From a virus: a DNA stretch of 27,300 nucleotides. The position numbers were made by a program, and so were the translations under genes. The stretch lies in IMG/VR virus record IMGVR_UViG_3300030109_003946, positions 1 to 27,300 of that record, one strand, 5' to 3'. A model generated the notes under the pieces. That model was given only the letters and a program-made list of their open reading frames with translations, was not told where the DNA came from and did no database searches. Each line of letters opens with the position of its first letter. Within the stretch, counting starts at the first letter, position 1. Positions 20,535 through 24,660 of the stretch are shown here, piece by piece.

Positions 20535-20714
20535 ATAGCTTGCTATAGAACATAAAGGGAACATAAAGAGAACAAAACGTGAACAAAACTAGAACATATC
20601 GCTCCTGGTGGAACATAACGAGAACAAAACAAGAACATTAGTCACAGCTGCATAGCTTGCTATGTAATATTATTATATAGCTTGCGTTGTATTTTTTATT
20701 ATATAGCTGACTAT
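20535..20714. repeat. ATAGCTTGCTAT palindromes flanking the iterons
   Basis: ATAGCTTGCTAT (arms ATAGC/GCTAT, two-base centre) occurs at 20535-20546, just before the iterons, and at 20652-20663, just after. Degenerate copies follow: ATAGCTTGCGTT at 20677-20688 and ATAGCTGACTAT at 20703-20714, spaced 25-26 bases. The two perfect copies share the 13-mer CATAGCTTGCTAT. A third identical 13-mer lies far away at 11850-11862 inside the small membrane-protein gene. Arm symmetry suggests a dimeric DNA-binding protein. Confidence 0.8.
20548..20643 (+). repeat. Array of eight 11-bp iterons (consensus GAACAWAAMGA)
   Basis: GAAC recurs at 20548, 20559, 20570, 20581 and 20592, each exactly 11 bases apart. 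After an eight-base interruption (TCCTGGTG, 20603-20610) it recurs at 20611, 20622 and 20633, again 11 apart. Typical units are GAACATAAAGA and GAACAAAACGT; the last unit, GAACATTAGTC, has decayed. An 11-base period puts every copy on nearly the same face of the helix, as in iterons bound cooperatively by an initiator or repressor. The array is flanked by identical palindromes and followed by AT-rich DNA. There are no spacers, so this is not a CRISPR array. Confidence 0.9.
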
Positions 20715-20753
20715 TTATTATTCTAACGCTGAAATATTTTTAGGGAGATTTTC

Positions 20754-20807: not shown

Positions 20808-20873
20808 ATTAATCTATTATCCTTATATACATATATTAATAATTAAATAAGCAATACAAGGGGGTTTATCCGC

Positions 20874-20888
20874 TTGCACGTTGTGCAA
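20874..20888. promoter_or_regulatory. Operator-like palindrome TTGCAC-GTT-GTGCAA before the early operon
   Basis: TTGCAC (20874-20879) and GTGCAA (20883-20888) are perfect inverted halves with a three-base centre. They lie 60 bases ahead of the first early gene. The left half could also serve as a weak -35, with CATAAA seventeen bases on as a -10. The divergent region at 26305-26387 shares a CTTGCA and an ATATGT at similar spacing, so a common regulator is possible. Confidence 0.45.
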
Positions 20889-20948
20889 ATATATGTCATA
20901 AATCTAATACTAATTAATTATTCAAAAAACTATGAAGGGGTTTTTTAA

Positions 20949-21212
20949 ATGGATAAATATAGAGAATATCTACTTAATAAGAATAAATCTGATAATACTA
21001 TTAAGAAATATATAGCAGTTATCAACCAAGTATCTAAAGAGCAAAATGTTGATTATTGGTCATTAATTGGTAATGAATGGGCCATAAGATTTAATTTTGA
21101 TAAATGGCTTGAGCTTCCACATAAAAAATATGGAACTAATAAAGAAAGAAATATAGCAGGTAAGCATTATTATTCAGCTCCATTCTCAGCATTAAGGAAG
21201 TGTCATGGATAA
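20949..21212 (+). CDS. Stand-alone recombinase core-binding-like protein
   Basis: This encodes 87 residues beginning MDKYREYLLNKNKSDNTIKK, followed by YIAVINQVSKEQNVDYWSLI. The 'YL..KN.S.NTIKKY...I' opening is the hallmark of the N-terminal SAM-like core-binding domain of tyrosine recombinases. The catalytic domain with its R-H-R-Y residues is absent, and the frame stops after about one domain. GAAGGGG precedes the ATG. The next gene looks like a diverged paralogue and overlaps by eight bases. It may bind DNA or interfere with a recombinase, or may be a remnant. As first gene of the plus-strand operon it is probably expressed early. Confidence 0.6.
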   Translation: MDKYREYLLNKNKSDNTIKKYIAVINQVSKEQNVDYWSLIGNEWAIRFNFDKWLELPHKKYGTNKERNIAGKHYYSAPFSALRKCHG

Positions 21213-21450
21213 TTTTGTGAATTACCTATTAAACAAAGATAAGCCATTATCTATCAGTTCTGCAAATAGATATAAAAACAGCGTGAAACGTGTTTATCGT
21301 GATTTAGGCTTAGATATAGCAAGTACATCTGATGAGGCTAAAAAGCACTTAACATTATGGCTATCAGATAATTATGAATTAAATAAGAAGGGGAACCGTC
21401 AGTGGTCCGCTTCTATGAGTAATTTTATTAAATTTTTGGAGGTAAATTAA
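21205..21450 (+). CDS. Second stand-alone recombinase core-binding-like protein
   Basis: This encodes 81 residues beginning MDNFVNYLLNKDKPLSISSA, followed by NRYKNSVKRVYRDLGLDI. Its opening aligns by eye with the preceding protein (MDxxxxYLLNKxK...I..Y...I..V), so the two are probable paralogues of the SAM-like core-binding fold. Here also no catalytic recombinase domain follows. The C-terminus reads WSASMSNFIKFLEVN, like the final helix of such a domain. AAGGAAG precedes the ATG; the frame overlaps the upstream gene by eight bases and the downstream gene by one. Confidence 0.6.
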   Translation: MDNFVNYLLNKDKPLSISSANRYKNSVKRVYRDLGLDIASTSDEAKKHLTLWLSDNYELNKKGNRQWSASMSNFIKFLEVN

Positions 21451-21689
21451 TGAGATATTTGAAAATAGATACTAATTTTAAAAAGGGTATTATTCGTGAA
21501 GCTCTTGAAAAGAGACTAAGAAGTTTAGAATACAAAGAGGAAAAAATAAGAAAAGAAGCTAGAGAATTAAATTATAATGGTGATGAAAATTTAAGAATTA
21601 GATCAAAAAATAATTATAAAGAAAAAATGATTGTTTGCGATTTAATTGATGATCTTTGTTGTATCGAACCAGAGGGGGAATATAAATAA
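21450..21689 (+). CDS. Small charged helical protein of the early operon
   Basis: This encodes 79 residues, highly charged (KRLRSLEYKEEKIRKEAREL), probably a coiled coil in the first half, and ending CDLIDDLCCIEPEGEYK with three cysteines. GGAGG precedes the ATG, and both ends overlap neighbours by one base (TAATG), so it is translationally coupled. I do not recognise the family. Confidence 0.6.
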   Translation: MRYLKIDTNFKKGIIREALEKRLRSLEYKEEKIRKEARELNYNGDENLRIRSKNNYKEKMIVCDLIDDLCCIEPEGEYK

Positions 21690-21982
21690 TGCGTAGTTTT
21701 AAAAATTTTATTGGTGATAATAATATTAAAATATCTGATAAGGGCGGTCTTTATTCATATATAGACCAAAGTGGACAAGAATGGCTTGTTAATCGAATTG
21801 TTTGCTCTCTTTTTCAAGAAAACACTGATTTTGGGTTACCTACTAGAATAAATCACTTGTGCGAATTTACTGCAACAAATGGTGCAGGATTTGTAGATAG
21901 ACCCATTAAGGGAAATAGAGATGATCTACAATTCATTGCAACTTTTAAGGAAGGCATTGAACTGCTTAAATGTTCTGCTTAG
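21689..21982 (+). CDS. Hypothetical early protein
   Basis: This encodes 97 residues with an AGAGGGGG ribosome site inside the end of the upstream gene. The product begins MRSFKNFIGDNNIKISDKGG and has SYIDQSGQEWLVNRIVCSLF in the middle. Three cysteines are present (C58 region and CSA end). No motif recognised. It is the last gene before the first structured intergenic module. Confidence 0.6.
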   Translation: MRSFKNFIGDNNIKISDKGGLYSYIDQSGQEWLVNRIVCSLFQENTDFGLPTRINHLCEFTATNGAGFVDRPIKGNRDDLQFIATFKEGIELLKCSA

Positions 21983-21987
21983 TTTTT

Positions 21988-22053
21988 GGGGGGAATTTCC
22001 CCCCATTTCTTAGAGTAGTCTTGAGAGACTATTCTAAGAAGTGGTAACACTTC
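21988..22053 (+). ncRNA. Structured intergenic module A (three hairpins)
   Basis: Hairpin 1 is GGGGGG (21988-21993), loop AATTT, CCCCCC (21999-22004), followed by a weak T-rich stretch, and may be a terminator. Hairpin 2 is a 15-bp stem (22007-22021 with 22026-22040) closed by TGAG, with one G-U pair and no mismatches. Hairpin 3 is GAAGTG-GTAA-CACTTC (22038-22053), a six-bp stem with a GNRA-type loop. Its first three bases are the last three of hairpin 2, so the two stems compete or stack. The next gene begins 33 bases on. The same order recurs in modules B and C. Confidence 0.75.
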
Positions 22054-22085
22054 GCAACCTCAACAACTTTTGAAGGAAGTTAAAA

Positions 22086-22595
22086 ATGGAAATTACAGAA
22101 GTAAATAAAACTAGAATAATAGCAGATAGCATAGACAATGCTTTTATAACTAAAGATTATCCTTATGGATTTAAATTAAGGACACAACGTAAAACCTGGA
22201 TTGAAACAAATGGGAAAAGAGGCGATAGAGTTTGTCATCAGACATTTAATCCTAAAAAAAATATTTGGAATAAGCCAAAAAAATCAACTTATTCGACTGC
22301 TATAGTTCTTTATCTTAACGATAAGGGTTATATAGATACTTATTATGTTGATAATCATGACAGTGAACATATTAAAAGGTTTATTGATACTTTTGAATTA
22401 AATGCACAACAAATTAAAAATTTGAATGGATATTTAGCTCTTAATAAGGTCATGAAAAATGTCACTTGGACTGTTGAACCTACAGCAAAAACACAATCAG
22501 AACGTGATAAACACAAGCAAAGACAAGATGCAATAACTAGTAAAATTGTAAATGCTTGGAATTATGAAGCTCATAAACTTAATAAGGGGGTTTGA
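22086..22595 (+). CDS. Conserved hypothetical phage protein
   Basis: This encodes 169 residues. The recognisable part is RTQRKTWIETNGKRGDRVCH followed by QTFNPKKNIWNKPKKSTYST. It resembles a small family of environmental-phage proteins in which 'R.WIE.......R...QT.NPKT..WNKPKKSTY' recurs. I know no function. After it come AIVLYLNDKGYIDTYYVDNH, a helical middle and a basic C-terminus. GAAGGAAG precedes the ATG. The gene is bracketed by structured modules A and B. Confidence 0.65.
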   Translation: MEITEVNKTRIIADSIDNAFITKDYPYGFKLRTQRKTWIETNGKRGDRVCHQTFNPKKNIWNKPKKSTYSTAIVLYLNDKGYIDTYYVDNHDSEHIKRFIDTFELNAQQIKNLNGYLALNKVMKNVTWTVEPTAKTQSERDKHKQRQDAITSKIVNAWNYEAHKLNKGV

Positions 22596-22596
22596 C

Positions 22597-22743
22597 ATGT
22601 CAGTTTATAAAAAACATCAAGATAAAATTAAAAAACAAAATAATAAATATCCATTAATGGAGTATTTTTTGGATAACAAGCCATTAAAAGAGTGTTCTGT
22701 AGAATGTCAAAAACAACTTAATCAATTGAATTTGAAGGCTTAA
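22597..22743 (+). CDS. Small basic protein of the early operon
   Basis: This encodes 48 residues from the ATG at 22597, which has AAGGGGG upstream. A longer frame starting at 22552 lies inside the preceding gene and is less likely. The product MSVYKKHQDKIKKQNNKYPL is basic at first and ends with two cysteines (CSVEC at 34-38 region). One base separates it from the stop of the preceding gene. Function unknown. Confidence 0.5.
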   Translation: MSVYKKHQDKIKKQNNKYPLMEYFLDNKPLKECSVECQKQLNQLNLKA

Positions 22744-22754
22744 ACCTGGTTTTA

Positions 22755-22841
22755 GGGGGGGGGTGCTATACCCTCCCATTTCCTTAAATAGCTTATTCTG
22801 AGGCTTTAAAATGGGCTATTTTAGGAAGTGGATAACACTTC
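22755..22841 (+). ncRNA. Structured intergenic module B (three hairpins)
   Basis: Hairpin 1 pairs the G-run (22755-22763) with CCCTCCC (22771-22777), about seven pairs with one G-U. Hairpin 2 is a 13-position stem with a single mismatch (22780-22792 with 22815-22827), extendable inward. Hairpin 3 is GAAGTG-GATAA-CACTTC (22825-22841), the same six-bp arms as in module A but with one extra base in the loop. The start of hairpin 3 overlaps the end of hairpin 2 by three bases, exactly as in A. A GAAGGGGG site and the next ATG follow. Confidence 0.75.
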
Positions 22842-22872
22842 ATAACACTAATTACCTTGAAGGGGGTATTAT

Positions 22873-23136
22873 ATGGATAATCAGACTATTATAGAAAGTT
22901 ATAGAGAAGCAAAGCCAAACACAAAGAAAAGTGATTCTGAAATAATTGAATTATATGTATCAGATGATGAGGGAGGGTTCATAAACGAATTAGCTGCACA
23001 AAGTTGTCCTTCGTATTATGAGACAGATGATTTTGATTTTAGGATTTTTGAAAGAGATTACGGGGTTTTTACCTGTTTATTTGAAAAAATTGTTTGTGTT
23101 GAAACCCTGGATTATTTAATTTTTGAAAGGTGTTAA
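22873..23136 (+). CDS. Acidic hypothetical early protein
   Basis: This encodes 87 residues, strongly acidic (SDSEIIELYVSDDEGGFINE, then YETDDFDFRIFERDYG), with four cysteines. GAAGGGGG precedes the ATG. Small acidic early phage proteins are often inhibitors or DNA mimics of host factors, but there is no direct evidence here. It follows module B and is one base from the next gene. Confidence 0.55.
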   Translation: MDNQTIIESYREAKPNTKKSDSEIIELYVSDDEGGFINELAAQSCPSYYETDDFDFRIFERDYGVFTCLFEKIVCVETLDYLIFERC

Positions 23137-23137
23137 A

Positions 23138-23371
23138 ATGAGTATAGTAGATAAAAGAGAGCTTACTACAATGGAAAAAGTATGGATTGAGGTAGCATTA
23201 AAAAATTTATTAAAGGGAAAAAATAAAAATAAAGTTAAATGGAAATTATTAAAACAAATAACAGATGAGAGGTTATGTTGTTCTGGATTACAAATAGACG
23301 TTCTTGAAAATTTAAATAGAAATTGGGATAATTTAAACAAAGTCAAAATTATACCATTTAAAGAAGAATAA
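23138..23371 (+). CDS. Basic hypothetical early protein
   Basis: This encodes 77 residues from the ATG at 23138, with an AAAGGTG ribosome site. A TTG-start extension to 23123 would overlap the upstream gene and is not needed. It is lysine-rich and helical (VWIEVALKNLLKGKNKNKVK), with a CC pair in the middle. It ends just before the terminator at 23385. Function unknown. The preceding gene is acidic and this one basic, so they could form a complex, but that is speculation. Confidence 0.5.
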   Translation: MSIVDKRELTTMEKVWIEVALKNLLKGKNKNKVKWKLLKQITDERLCCSGLQIDVLENLNRNWDNLNKVKIIPFKEE

Positions 23372-23384
23372 CCCCTTAAACTTA

Positions 23385-23415
23385 GGGAGGGCTTCAGGCT
23401 CTCCCATTTTTTTTT
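23385..23415 (+). terminator. Rho-independent terminator (hairpin 1 of module C)
   Basis: GGGAGGGC (23385-23392) pairs with GCTCTCCC (23398-23405) around a five-base loop, with one G-U pair, and is followed by A and then nine T (23407-23415). This is a strong intrinsic terminator for the plus strand, placed 14 bases after a stop codon. Two further hairpins follow before the next gene. Confidence 0.85.
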
Positions 23416-23423
23416 GGCTGTGT

Positions 23424-23474
23424 TTTGACAAGGTTTTAAGCCTTGTCAAATCATAATCAATTAAGATTATGATT
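23424..23474 (+). ncRNA. Tandem hairpins of module C
   Basis: TTTGACAAGG (23424-23433) and CCTTGTCAAA (23441-23450) form a perfect 10-bp stem. AATCATAATC (23449-23458) and GATTATGATT (23465-23474) form another. The second shares two bases with the first, as in modules A and B. Sequence differs completely from those modules, yet number, order and overlap of stems are the same. GGAGG and the next ATG follow at once. Confidence 0.75.
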
Positions 23475-23491
23475 AATGGAGGTACTACAAA

Positions 23492-23752
23492 ATGAATAAT
23501 GAGCAAGTAGAAAATTGGTTAGGTAATCGTGATTTAATTCATTATTACGATATGGAAAGAATTAAGAGTAAGATTATATATGATAAATATACATGGCTTT
23601 TTATTCTTAATGATGGGTGTATAGATGCTTACAATATGGGTTGTATGTATGGTGAGTGTTATGATGATCGCAGCAATAAAGAAGGTATTTTTGATAATAG
23701 TGCTAAAATTCAAGAATGGGTTCAAAAATTAAATCAAATGATGGAGGGTTAA
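23492..23752 (+). CDS. Hypothetical early protein
   Basis: This encodes 86 residues beginning MNNEQVENWLGNRDLIHYYD, with aromatic and acidic residues and two cysteines (MGCMYGEC). The C-terminus is helical (KIQEWVQKLNQMMEG). GGAGG precedes the ATG. It is separated from the small membrane protein by one base. Family not recognised. Confidence 0.55.
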   Translation: MNNEQVENWLGNRDLIHYYDMERIKSKIIYDKYTWLFILNDGCIDAYNMGCMYGECYDDRSNKEGIFDNSAKIQEWVQKLNQMMEG

Positions 23753-23753
23753 A

Positions 23754-23951
23754 ATGAAAGAAGTACTAGGGATTATATGTTTTATTTTCAGTGGTATGTT
23801 GTTTATTGCAAGTAAGGATTATCAATATTTTGGTGAATCACCAGAATTAATGACTTCAACTCTGGTAATAAAATTATTATTACTCTTAATGGGGTTTATT
23901 GTCGCTTTTTCTGGTTTTTATATTGTTATTTCTGATAGAAAGGGGGGTTAA
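23754..23951 (+). CDS. Small two-segment membrane protein
   Basis: This encodes 65 residues with two hydrophobic segments, about 3-19 (EVLGIICFIFSGMLFIA) and 36-60 (TLVIKLLLLLMGFIVAFSGF and onward), separated by a short polar loop and ending in a charged SDRKGG. There is no cleavage-site-like signal. It could be an inner-membrane protein modifying the host envelope (for example superinfection exclusion) or a holin. Its place in the early-type operon argues more for the former. GGAGGG precedes the ATG. Confidence 0.6.
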   Translation: MKEVLGIICFIFSGMLFIASKDYQYFGESPELMTSTLVIKLLLLLMGFIVAFSGFYIVISDRKGG

Positions 23952-23952
23952 A

Positions 23953-24222
23953 ATGATTAATAAAAAAGAATTTACAGTTTCAATTATGTGGGGAGAATTT
24001 ACGGAATATGTTCCAATGTCTTACAGCTTCAAAACAAAGGCAGAACTTGACGCATTTTTATTTGGTGTTGAAGAGGCTCATGGTTGTGGAGTGATGAATT
24101 ATATTGTTCATACAAAAGGAAAAGATCAAAAGTTTACGTTAAAAGAATTTGATTTAGATAAACGTAATTTATCAAGTGCGTTTTTAAAGGAATGGGAAGG
24201 ATATATGGAGACTAGACCATAA
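23953..24222 (+). CDS. Hypothetical early protein
   Basis: This encodes 89 residues from the ATG at 23953, with AAAGGGGGG upstream. An in-frame extension to 23899 lies in the membrane-protein gene and is unlikely. It begins MINKKEFTVSIMWGEFTEYV, with YSFKTKAELDAFLFGVEEAHG in the middle, a pattern I recall in small phage proteins near early genes. It ends only three bases before the stop of the convergent gene on the other strand, with no terminator between them. Confidence 0.6.
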   Translation: MINKKEFTVSIMWGEFTEYVPMSYSFKTKAELDAFLFGVEEAHGCGVMNYIVHTKGKDQKFTLKEFDLDKRNLSSAFLKEWEGYMETRP

Positions 24223-24225
24223 AAA

Positions 24226-24660
24226 TTAAAGTCTATGTAATGGACTAATTTGCTTTTTAAATATTTTCCAGGTAGGTGGTAAATGCCCATATATAACGGT
24301 GTTTACCACTTTTTTTTGATTTGGGTAAAGCAATTTGTTCATAACTTCTAACTTTTGTTTAATTAGCTGCAGTTGTTGTTCTGGCATTTCACCTTTTTTG
24401 ATTGGATTATAATTAATTGCTTTAACGTTAGGTTGCCAGATTTGGCAATATAGTTTTTCAAACTCTCTGCAAATATCGTATTCAGTTTGATTTATTTTAT
24501 TATTTGACAGAGCATAGCCCAATATATCTTCTGGTAAATCTTTCCTTATTCCTACAGCTTCTTTTCTTAAAATACACTTCAATATCCATTGTTTCATTTC
24601 TGCCCTTTTGTTGGCATTGCTTCTATTTTTCTGGATTTGGATTGCTTTTTGAATAGCCAT
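24226..24660 (-). CDS. Hypothetical protein downstream of the replication gene
   Basis: This encodes 144 residues: a basic, helical N-terminus (QIQKNRSNANKRAEMKQWIL), a middle with EYDICREFEKLYCQIWQPNV, and a basic C-terminus. The start overlaps the 290-residue replication-type gene by 38 bases in another frame. In replication modules of this kind the next gene is often a helicase loader, but no Walker motif is present here. A small accessory replication protein is only a guess from position. Confidence 0.55.
   Translation of the reverse strand: MAIQKAIQIQKNRSNANKRAEMKQWILKCILRKEAVGIRKDLPEDILGYALSNNKINQTEYDICREFEKLYCQIWQPNVKAINYNPIKKGEMPEQQLQLIKQKLEVMNKLLYPNQKKVVNTVIYGHLPPTWKIFKKQISPLHRL

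What the first reader, a model, noticed from the sequence alone, without database searches (positions are those of the whole stretch)
21988..23474. Three intergenic RNAs with the same three-hairpin architecture but different sequence
Modules A (21988-22053), B (22755-22841) and C (23385-23474) each hold a G/C-rich terminator-like hairpin, then a long stem, then a second stem that shares its first two or three bases with the end of the long stem, then a ribosome site and start codon. In C both tandem stems are perfect 10-mers although the sequence is unrelated to A and B. Keeping structure while changing sequence is what selection on RNA folding looks like. Possible roles (inference) are cis antitermination like HK022 put RNA, processing sites, or small RNAs released between genes.
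Basis: partly seen in the sequence, partly recalled or inferred. Interest (0 to 1): 0.88.

Follow-up and report, generated by a model that had tools for sequence, protein, structure and literature searches.

The report
Three-hairpin RNA leaders between phage genes
Between blocks of early genes, this uncultured phage carries a structured RNA element that keeps its folded shape while its sequence and the genes around it change; it most likely marks off and protects separate stretches of messenger RNA and doubles as a swap point for genes.

Summary
Modules A, B and C are the only places in the 35.5-kb phage record with the full H1-H2-H3 architecture (H1, G/C hairpin; H2, long stem; H3, abutting second stem), all on the early coding strand; unrelated contigs have about 0.4 per equal length. 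One correction: A and B are homologous (AUUUC...GAAGUG...CACUUC); only C is separate.

Relatives carry the element 1-3 times per early operon, between different genes. On ten A/B-type copies, 10 of 18 base pairs show compensatory change (27 cells against 7 in shuffles), G-U outnumbers A-C 15 to 2 on the transcribed strand, and H3 ends 30-34 nt before the start codon in every copy. So it is a folded RNA at a fixed place on the downstream message. It matches no Rfam family, and the model does not find HK022 put.

Best reading (inferred): a cis-acting boundary between gene blocks of one polycistronic early message. H1 caps the upstream part, H2-H3 form the structured 5' leader of the next, much as T7 RNase III sites work. 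The modules are also the conserved joints at which relatives swap genes. Put-like antitermination is less likely. A T5-like phage has the same H2-H3, with the same spacing, before gene A2.

The parts
20949..21982 (+). Gene block 1 of the early operon: four small ORFs (87, 81, 79, 97 aa) that overlap each other by 1-8 nt
   Evidence: ORF list; gaps -8, -1, -1
21987..22005 (+). Module A, H1: UGGGGGG-AAUUU-CCCCCCA hairpin, poor U-tract (AUUUCUUA)
22007..22040 (+). Module A, H2: 15-bp stem UUCUUAGAGUAGUCU / AGACUAUUCUAAGAA with a G-U at bp 9
   Evidence: covariation
22038..22053 (+). Module A, H3: GAAGUG / CACUUC hairpin sharing GAA with H2; ends 32 nt before AUG 22086
22054..22085 (+). Module A spacer of fixed length with ribosome site UUUGAAGGAAGUU
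22086..22743 (+). Gene block 2: 169-aa and 48-aa ORFs, 1 nt apart; the 169-aa ORF has no counterpart in relatives
22757..22777 (+). Module B, H1: GGGGGGGUG-CUA-UACCCUCCC hairpin, poor U-tract
22780..22827 (+). Module B, H2: long stem UUCCUUAAAUAGC.. / ..GCUAUUUUAGGAA with mismatch at bp 6 and a longer apical part
22825..22841 (+). Module B, H3: GAAGUG / CACUUC hairpin sharing GAA with H2; ends 31 nt before AUG 22873
22873..23371 (+). Gene block 3: 87-aa and 77-aa ORFs, 1 nt apart, neither found in relatives
23385..23405 (+). Module C, H1: GGGAGGGCU-UCA-GGCUCUCCC followed by AUUUUUUUUU, a good intrinsic terminator
23424..23450 (+). Module C, H2: perfect 10-bp stem UUUGACAAGG / CCUUGUCAAA; relatives keep it by one double change (G-C to A-U) and one G-U
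23449..23474 (+). Module C, H3: perfect 10-bp stem AAUCAUAAUC / GAUUAUGAUU sharing AA with H2
23492..24222 (+). Gene block 4: three ORFs 1 nt apart; the 65-aa ORF 23754-23951 is conserved in all relatives with a complete early region
24275..24317 (+). Strong terminator at the end of the operon (GUGGUAAA..UUUACCAC + 8 U)
   Evidence: sequence; U-tract score 6.0 against about 3 for A and B

Best explanation
A, B and C are cis-acting structured RNA elements at the borders between four translationally coupled gene blocks of one early message. Shown: the RNA fold on the + strand is under selection; each element replaces the 1-nt or overlapping junctions found elsewhere in the operon; and in the A/B type H3 always ends about 32 nt before the next start codon. 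Inferred: H1 acts as the 3' cap of the upstream block (partial terminator and barrier to 3' exonucleases), and H2-H3 act as a processing signal and/or 5' protective leader that leaves the next block's ribosome site free, so that each block becomes its own mRNA segment with its own level and lifetime, as T7 RNase III sites do. Because many copies share sequence, they also serve as homology joints at which the phages (which encode Erf-like annealing and RecE-like proteins) swap gene cassettes without breaking expression signals.
For: Covariation: 10 of 18 pairs changed on both sides, 27 such cells against 7.0 +/- 2.6 in shuffles, slid controls 0-2 pairs. G-U 15 cells against A-C 2 on the + strand; the covariance model scores 73-84 bits on the + strand and 12-30 on the other. 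Found only in the early region of six related records, 1-3 per operon. Gene gaps in the operon are -8, -1, -1, 103, 1, 129, 1, 120, 1, 1. H3-to-AUG distance 30-34 nt, mean 32, sd 1.1, n = 11. Only one weak promoter-like match in the A/B modules. The modules are conserved islands running from near the upstream stop codon to the downstream start codon between unrelated genes. Erf, RecE-like and NinB homologues. T7 RNase III hairpins likewise end roughly 20-30 nt before start codons (read from the folds). That T7 RNAs are RNase III targets and that 5' stem-loops can stabilise mRNA are cited in PMC5371410.
Against: No transcript data: neither cleavage, termination nor stability was measured. RNase III or RNase E recognition cannot be tested from sequence. 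The 15-bp stem is short for a strong RNase III substrate. The fixed spacing could be partly inherited, since the A/B copies are homologous. Module C lies 17 nt from its start codon and has a good terminator, so it may work differently.
Confidence: 0.5

Rival explanations
1. Put-like cis antitermination: the nascent H2-H3 tandem stems bind the host RNA polymerase and make it ignore later terminators (the next H1).
For: Two adjacent stem-loops in an early phage transcript next to terminator-like hairpins, as in HK022 put (PMC9378689). In the T5-like phage L170 the same tandem stems sit in a promoter-proximal leader after an rrn-type boxA.
Against: The hairpin always precedes the stems, so the first H1 has no stems upstream. 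The model does not find put in HK022 (best 8.8 bits). The stems are near-perfect, whereas put has bulges and non-canonical pairs. The fixed 30-34 nt spacing to the start codon is unexplained. No boxA above chance in the window.
Confidence: 0.15
2. Recombination linkers first and foremost, like the mobile promoter/stem-loop cassettes described from T4-type phages (recalled from memory): conserved intergenic islands that allow cassette exchange, the hairpins being ordinary terminator and leader signals carried along.
For: Modules are the only conserved stretches between unrelated genes (L129 against L139: 88, 85 and 83 percent over 110-130 nt with different genes between; W against L122: 21976-22090). 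The phage encodes Erf-like annealing protein and RecE-like exonuclease.
Against: A pure homology linker would keep its sequence, not its base pairs; here the stems covary. A/B-type modules hold at most one weak promoter match.
Confidence: 0.15
3. Ordinary intrinsic terminators followed by incidental hairpins in the leaders of the next genes.
For: H1 is terminator-like in all copies, and module C has a good U-tract. H1 occurs alone in L125.
Against: H2 and H3, not only H1, covary and keep an invariant core AUUUC / GAAGU / CUUC. The A/B U-tract is poor. No clear promoter follows H1 to restart transcription.
Confidence: 0.12
4. Small RNAs released between genes.
For: Compact, stable, repeated intergenic RNAs.
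Against: The terminator-like hairpin is 5' of the stems, the elements run straight into a ribosome site, and loops are not conserved.
Confidence: 0.04
5. DNA-level palindromes (operators or replication sites) rather than RNA.
For: Module C stems are perfect inverted repeats on both strands.
Against: G-U pairs are strongly biased to the + strand (15 against 2) and the model scores the + strand far above the other.
Confidence: 0.03

Closest known systems
Bacteriophage T7 RNase III processing sites between early genes
   Same: Structured hairpins between genes of one polycistronic early message; in folds of the T7 leaders the stem ends roughly 20-30 nt before the next start codon, close to the 30-34 nt here
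   Different: T7 sites are usually one long stem with an internal loop; here a G/C hairpin is followed by two stems that share bases, with an invariant junction core. Cleavage here is untested.
HK022 put RNA
   Same: Two adjacent stem-loops of about 70 nt in an early phage transcript (PMC9378689)
   Different: No sequence or model match; stems near-perfect; placed after, not before, the terminator-like hairpin; repeated 1-3 times; fixed distance to start codons
T4-type mobile promoter/stem-loop cassettes (PeSLs; recalled, source paper not in the library)
   Same: Repeated intergenic islands with stem-loops at which gene cassettes are exchanged
   Different: No clear promoter inside the A/B modules (one weak match in B), three hairpins instead of one, and covarying stems
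Leader of gene A2 in T5-like phages (Demerecviridae) and in contig L170
   Same: A long stem plus an abutting or overlapping short stem just upstream of the ribosome site; L170 has the same AUUUC / GAAGU / ACUUCGCAAC core and a 33-nt spacer; other T5-like leaders have 12-14 bp + 5-8 bp tandem stems, four of them 31-38 nt before AUG
   Different: Apart from L170 the T5-like leaders have unrelated sequence and are not found by the model; tandem hairpins of this loose kind are not rare in phage intergenic DNA
Rfam skipping-rope RNA (RF02924)
   Same: Sub-threshold hit over module A
   Different: On the opposite strand, 26 bits against a cut-off of 36.7, absent from every other copy, and the family rings below cut-off in 9 of 14 control genomes

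Membership tests
HK022 put | Sequence/structure relation to put RNA | tested here: not met
   Model R2 gives at most 8.8 bits on HK022 25000-40751, both strands, filters off
HK022 put | Located downstream of the early promoter and upstream of the terminators it suppresses | tested here: not met
   In every relative the G/C hairpin precedes the tandem stems, and the first hairpin has no stems before it
HK022 put | Suppresses pausing/termination through the RNA polymerase beta' zinc-binding domain | not testable with these tools
   Needs a transcription assay
T7-type RNase III intercistronic site | Stem between genes of one transcript, ending about 20-35 nt before the next start codon | tested here: met
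   H3-to-AUG 30-34 nt in 11 copies; T7 leaders folded for comparison
T7-type RNase III intercistronic site | Cleavage by RNase III in vivo | not testable with these tools
   Needs 5'/3' end mapping in rnc+ and rnc- cells
Intrinsic terminator | G/C hairpin followed by an uninterrupted U-tract | tested here: inconclusive
   Met by H1 of C (7 U of 8); weak for H1 of A/B type (4-5 U of 8, interrupted)
lambda/rrn nut-type antitermination site | boxA near the hairpin | tested here: not met
   Five boxA-like sites with up to 2 mismatches in the window, 5.8 expected, none in the early region; present only in the L170 leader
Any Rfam family | Score above the gathering cut-off | tested here: not met
   No match in the window; only sub-threshold matches in the permissive search
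T4-type mobile promoter/stem-loop cassette | Promoter within the intergenic cassette | tested here: not met
   No sigma70-like site in nine of ten A/B modules; one weak match in B. Other promoter types are not excluded.

The most novel reading that the evidence does not exclude
A previously undescribed class of phage 5'-leader RNA: two stems that compete for a shared strand (UUC / GAA / UUC) at a fixed distance from the start codon, used by unrelated phages (this podovirus group and T5-like phages ahead of A2) as a portable mRNA insulator that travels with exchangeable early genes.
Probability: 0.3. Interest if true: 0.72.

Novelty: new variant of a known kind. Interest (0 to 1): 0.52.

Why it matters
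If right, it is a natural, portable RNA part that lets a phage insert or swap early genes without disturbing neighbours: transcript boundary, protected leader and ribosome site in about 100 nt. It gives a testable link between RNA structure and the mosaic evolution of phage early regions, and a new structured-RNA family to search for, with a hint that T5-like phages use the same design ahead of A2.

Tried and rejected
Rfam: no hit at the gathering score; skipping-rope (26 bits, other strand, module A only) rejected after checking all relatives and controls. Helicobacter anseris pattern hit (L144) has no stems: chance. Pattern scans of viral contigs: of about 60 further pattern matches, only L170 had real stems; the GAAGTGGNNAACACTTC matches L002-L120 showed no adjoining stem and serve as a negative control (best 25.7 bits). 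Neighbour proteins: no PHROG family at E <= 0.001, only weak sub-cut-off Pfam hits, no relatives for the 169-aa ORF. boxA in the window: chance level. HK022 put by model: no match. More distant phages (Venkman, HTVC010P, HTVC106P, Rhodoferax P26218, MW202481) carry no A/B-type element; the H1-H2-H3 scan hits in P26218 and in high-GC contigs were not of this family, and most overlap ORFs. Tandem hairpins alone, without the other features, are not rare in phage intergenic DNA (0.47 per kb of strand in controls, 1.7 in T7), so the T5-like leaders other than L170 are only suggestive. Literature searches for an existing description found none.

Full report
WHAT IS THERE. The window is bases 1-27300 of a 35,458-bp IMG/VR virus record. 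Its terminase is closest to Methylophilales phage Venkman (49 percent) and to Pelagibacter and Rhodoferax podoviruses; the host is not known. The early genes lie on the + strand, 20949-24222. They form four blocks in which neighbouring genes overlap or lie 1 nt apart; the only larger gaps are 103, 129 and 120 nt, and these are modules A, B and C. The operon ends in a strong terminator at 24275-24317.

CHECK OF THE OBSERVATION. Each module holds a G/C hairpin (H1), a long stem (H2) and a second hairpin (H3) that starts on the last bases of H2: GAA in A and B, AA in C. Fold z-scores on the + strand are -5.5, -3.5 and -4.5. A scan for the complete architecture finds A, B and C and nothing else in the whole record on either strand; 40 shuffles of the early region gave none, and 119 loci of unrelated phages gave 12 in 1.93 Mb of strand, or about 0.4 expected in this genome. 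C is a separate class.

RELATIVES AND COVARIATION. Records with 84-98 percent terminase identity were fetched. Five of them (the records behind L122, L123, L129, L135 and L139) carry one to three A/B-type copies in the early region, always on the coding strand; L129 and L135 carry identical modules. On ten distinct copies (two from the window), 96 percent of cells pair, 10 of 18 pairs have a change on both sides, and 27 cells carry such a change against 7.0 +/- 2.6 in shuffles; sliding the partner by 1-3 columns gives 0-2 such pairs. Examples are GAAGUG/CACUUC against GAAGUA/UACUUC in H3, and U-A, C-G, A-U and U-G at pair 5 of H2. Pair 6 of H2 is usually mismatched and pair 9 is G-U or A-U, so the stem has recurrent irregularities. 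G-U cells outnumber A-C cells 15 to 2 on the + strand, and the model scores 73-84 bits on that strand against 12-30 on the other, so the RNA of the early transcript is what is selected. The invariant core is at the junction: AUUUC before H2, GAAGU shared by H2 and H3, CUUC closing H3. Loops vary. For C there are only three sequences, with one double change and three single-sided changes that keep pairing: consistent, but not significant.

FIXED PLACE ON THE MESSAGE. In all ten A/B copies, and in the distant copy below, H3 ends 30-34 nt (mean 32, sd 1.1) before the start codon of the next gene. The spacer differs in sequence except near the ribosome site UUGAAGG. Only one weak promoter-like site lies between H1 and the start codon in the A/B modules. 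The element is therefore part of the leader of the next gene block. Module C differs: its H3 is 17 nt from the start codon and its H1 has a good U-tract.

GENE SWAPPING. Modules persist while the genes on either side change. Downstream of A there is a 169-aa orphan in the window but an unrelated family in L122, L123 and L139; both neighbours of B differ between window and L123. DNA similarity between window and L122 runs from 21976 to 22090, that is from the upstream stop codon to the downstream start codon. Between L129 and L139 the modules are 83-88 percent identical over 110-130 nt while the genes they separate are unrelated. The record encodes Erf-like, RecE-like and NinB-like recombination proteins, which makes recombination at such short shared islands plausible (inference).

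A DISTANT COPY. A structural pattern scan of the viral collection found one unrelated virus with the element: L170, whose terminase is 68 percent identical to T5-like Vibrio phages. It has UAUUUCUUAAAAUG.../...CAUUUUAAGAAGU...ACUUCGCAAC, with 16 pairs and one mismatch in H2 and 8 pairs in H3, and a 33-nt spacer, ahead of a homologue of T5 gene A2. A model built without it scores it 29.6 bits. Here H1 is A/U-rich and an rrn-type boxA lies upstream. Of roughly sixty other pattern matches none had stems. A2 leaders of other T5-like phages carry tandem stems of unrelated sequence, four of them 31-38 nt before the start; loose tandem hairpins are common enough in phage intergenic DNA that this is suggestive only.

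HOW IT MOST LIKELY WORKS. Shown: a selected RNA fold on the early message, repeated at block borders, at a fixed distance from the next start codon. Inferred: H1 protects or ends the upstream segment, and H2-H3 form a processing signal or protective 5' leader that leaves the ribosome site free, so each block becomes an mRNA segment with its own level. H1 alone (L125) and H2-H3 with an A/U-rich upstream hairpin (L170) show that the two halves can be separated. T7 early messages are cut by RNase III between genes (cited in PMC5371410), and folds of T7 leaders put those stems roughly 20-30 nt before start codons, a close functional parallel. The put model is weaker because the terminator-like hairpin always comes first, put itself is not matched, and it does not explain the fixed spacing.

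LIMITS. No expression data exist here. The A/B copies come from five distinct phages, some as paralogues, and from incomplete records. L170 was found by a scan that required the core motif, so only its stems, position and spacing are independent evidence.

Noticed in passing
L170:6500-6060 (minus strand), IMG/VR 3300028294_000071: T5-like phage A2 leader with two tandem promoter-like sites (TTGACG-17-TAACAT), two rrn-type boxA copies (GCTCTTTAACA) and then the H2-H3 element; suggests rrn-style antitermination of a pre-early operon.
   Followed up: partly
L231, L233, L234, L235, L236, L237, L238 upstream of A2: A2 leaders of T5-like phages of Vibrio, Salmonella, E. coli, Klebsiella, Erwinia and Proteus hold tandem or overlapping hairpins of unrelated sequence; in Proteus phage Stubb a UAACAC strand can pair with GUGUUA on either side.
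   Followed up: partly
window 20540-20740: Direct repeats of GAACA(T/A)AA(C/G) about every 11 nt and copies of TAGCTTGCTATA between the divergent late and early operons, also present in relatives: possible iterons, operators or origin.
   Followed up: no
window 20869-20900: Promoter-like TTGCAC-17-CATAAA whose -35 overlaps an inverted repeat TTGCACgttGTGCAA; conserved in L122 and, with a better -10, in L125.
   Followed up: partly
window 20949-21450: Two small adjacent ORFs whose starts resemble the SAM-like core-binding domain of phage integrases (first: Pfam E 0.008, below cut-off), without a catalytic domain.
   Followed up: no
L129 and L135, upstream of the early operon (about 100-160 nt into the extracted stretch): A tRNA 3'-end-like sequence (GGGTTCGACTCCC...TCC) absent from the window: possible attachment site or tRNA remnant.
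   Followed up: no
L122, L123, L139 gene downstream of module A (115-129 aa): Homologous to small proteins of Lactococcus and Enterococcus phages (up to 52-55 percent identity over part of the protein), an unexpected host spread.
   Followed up: no
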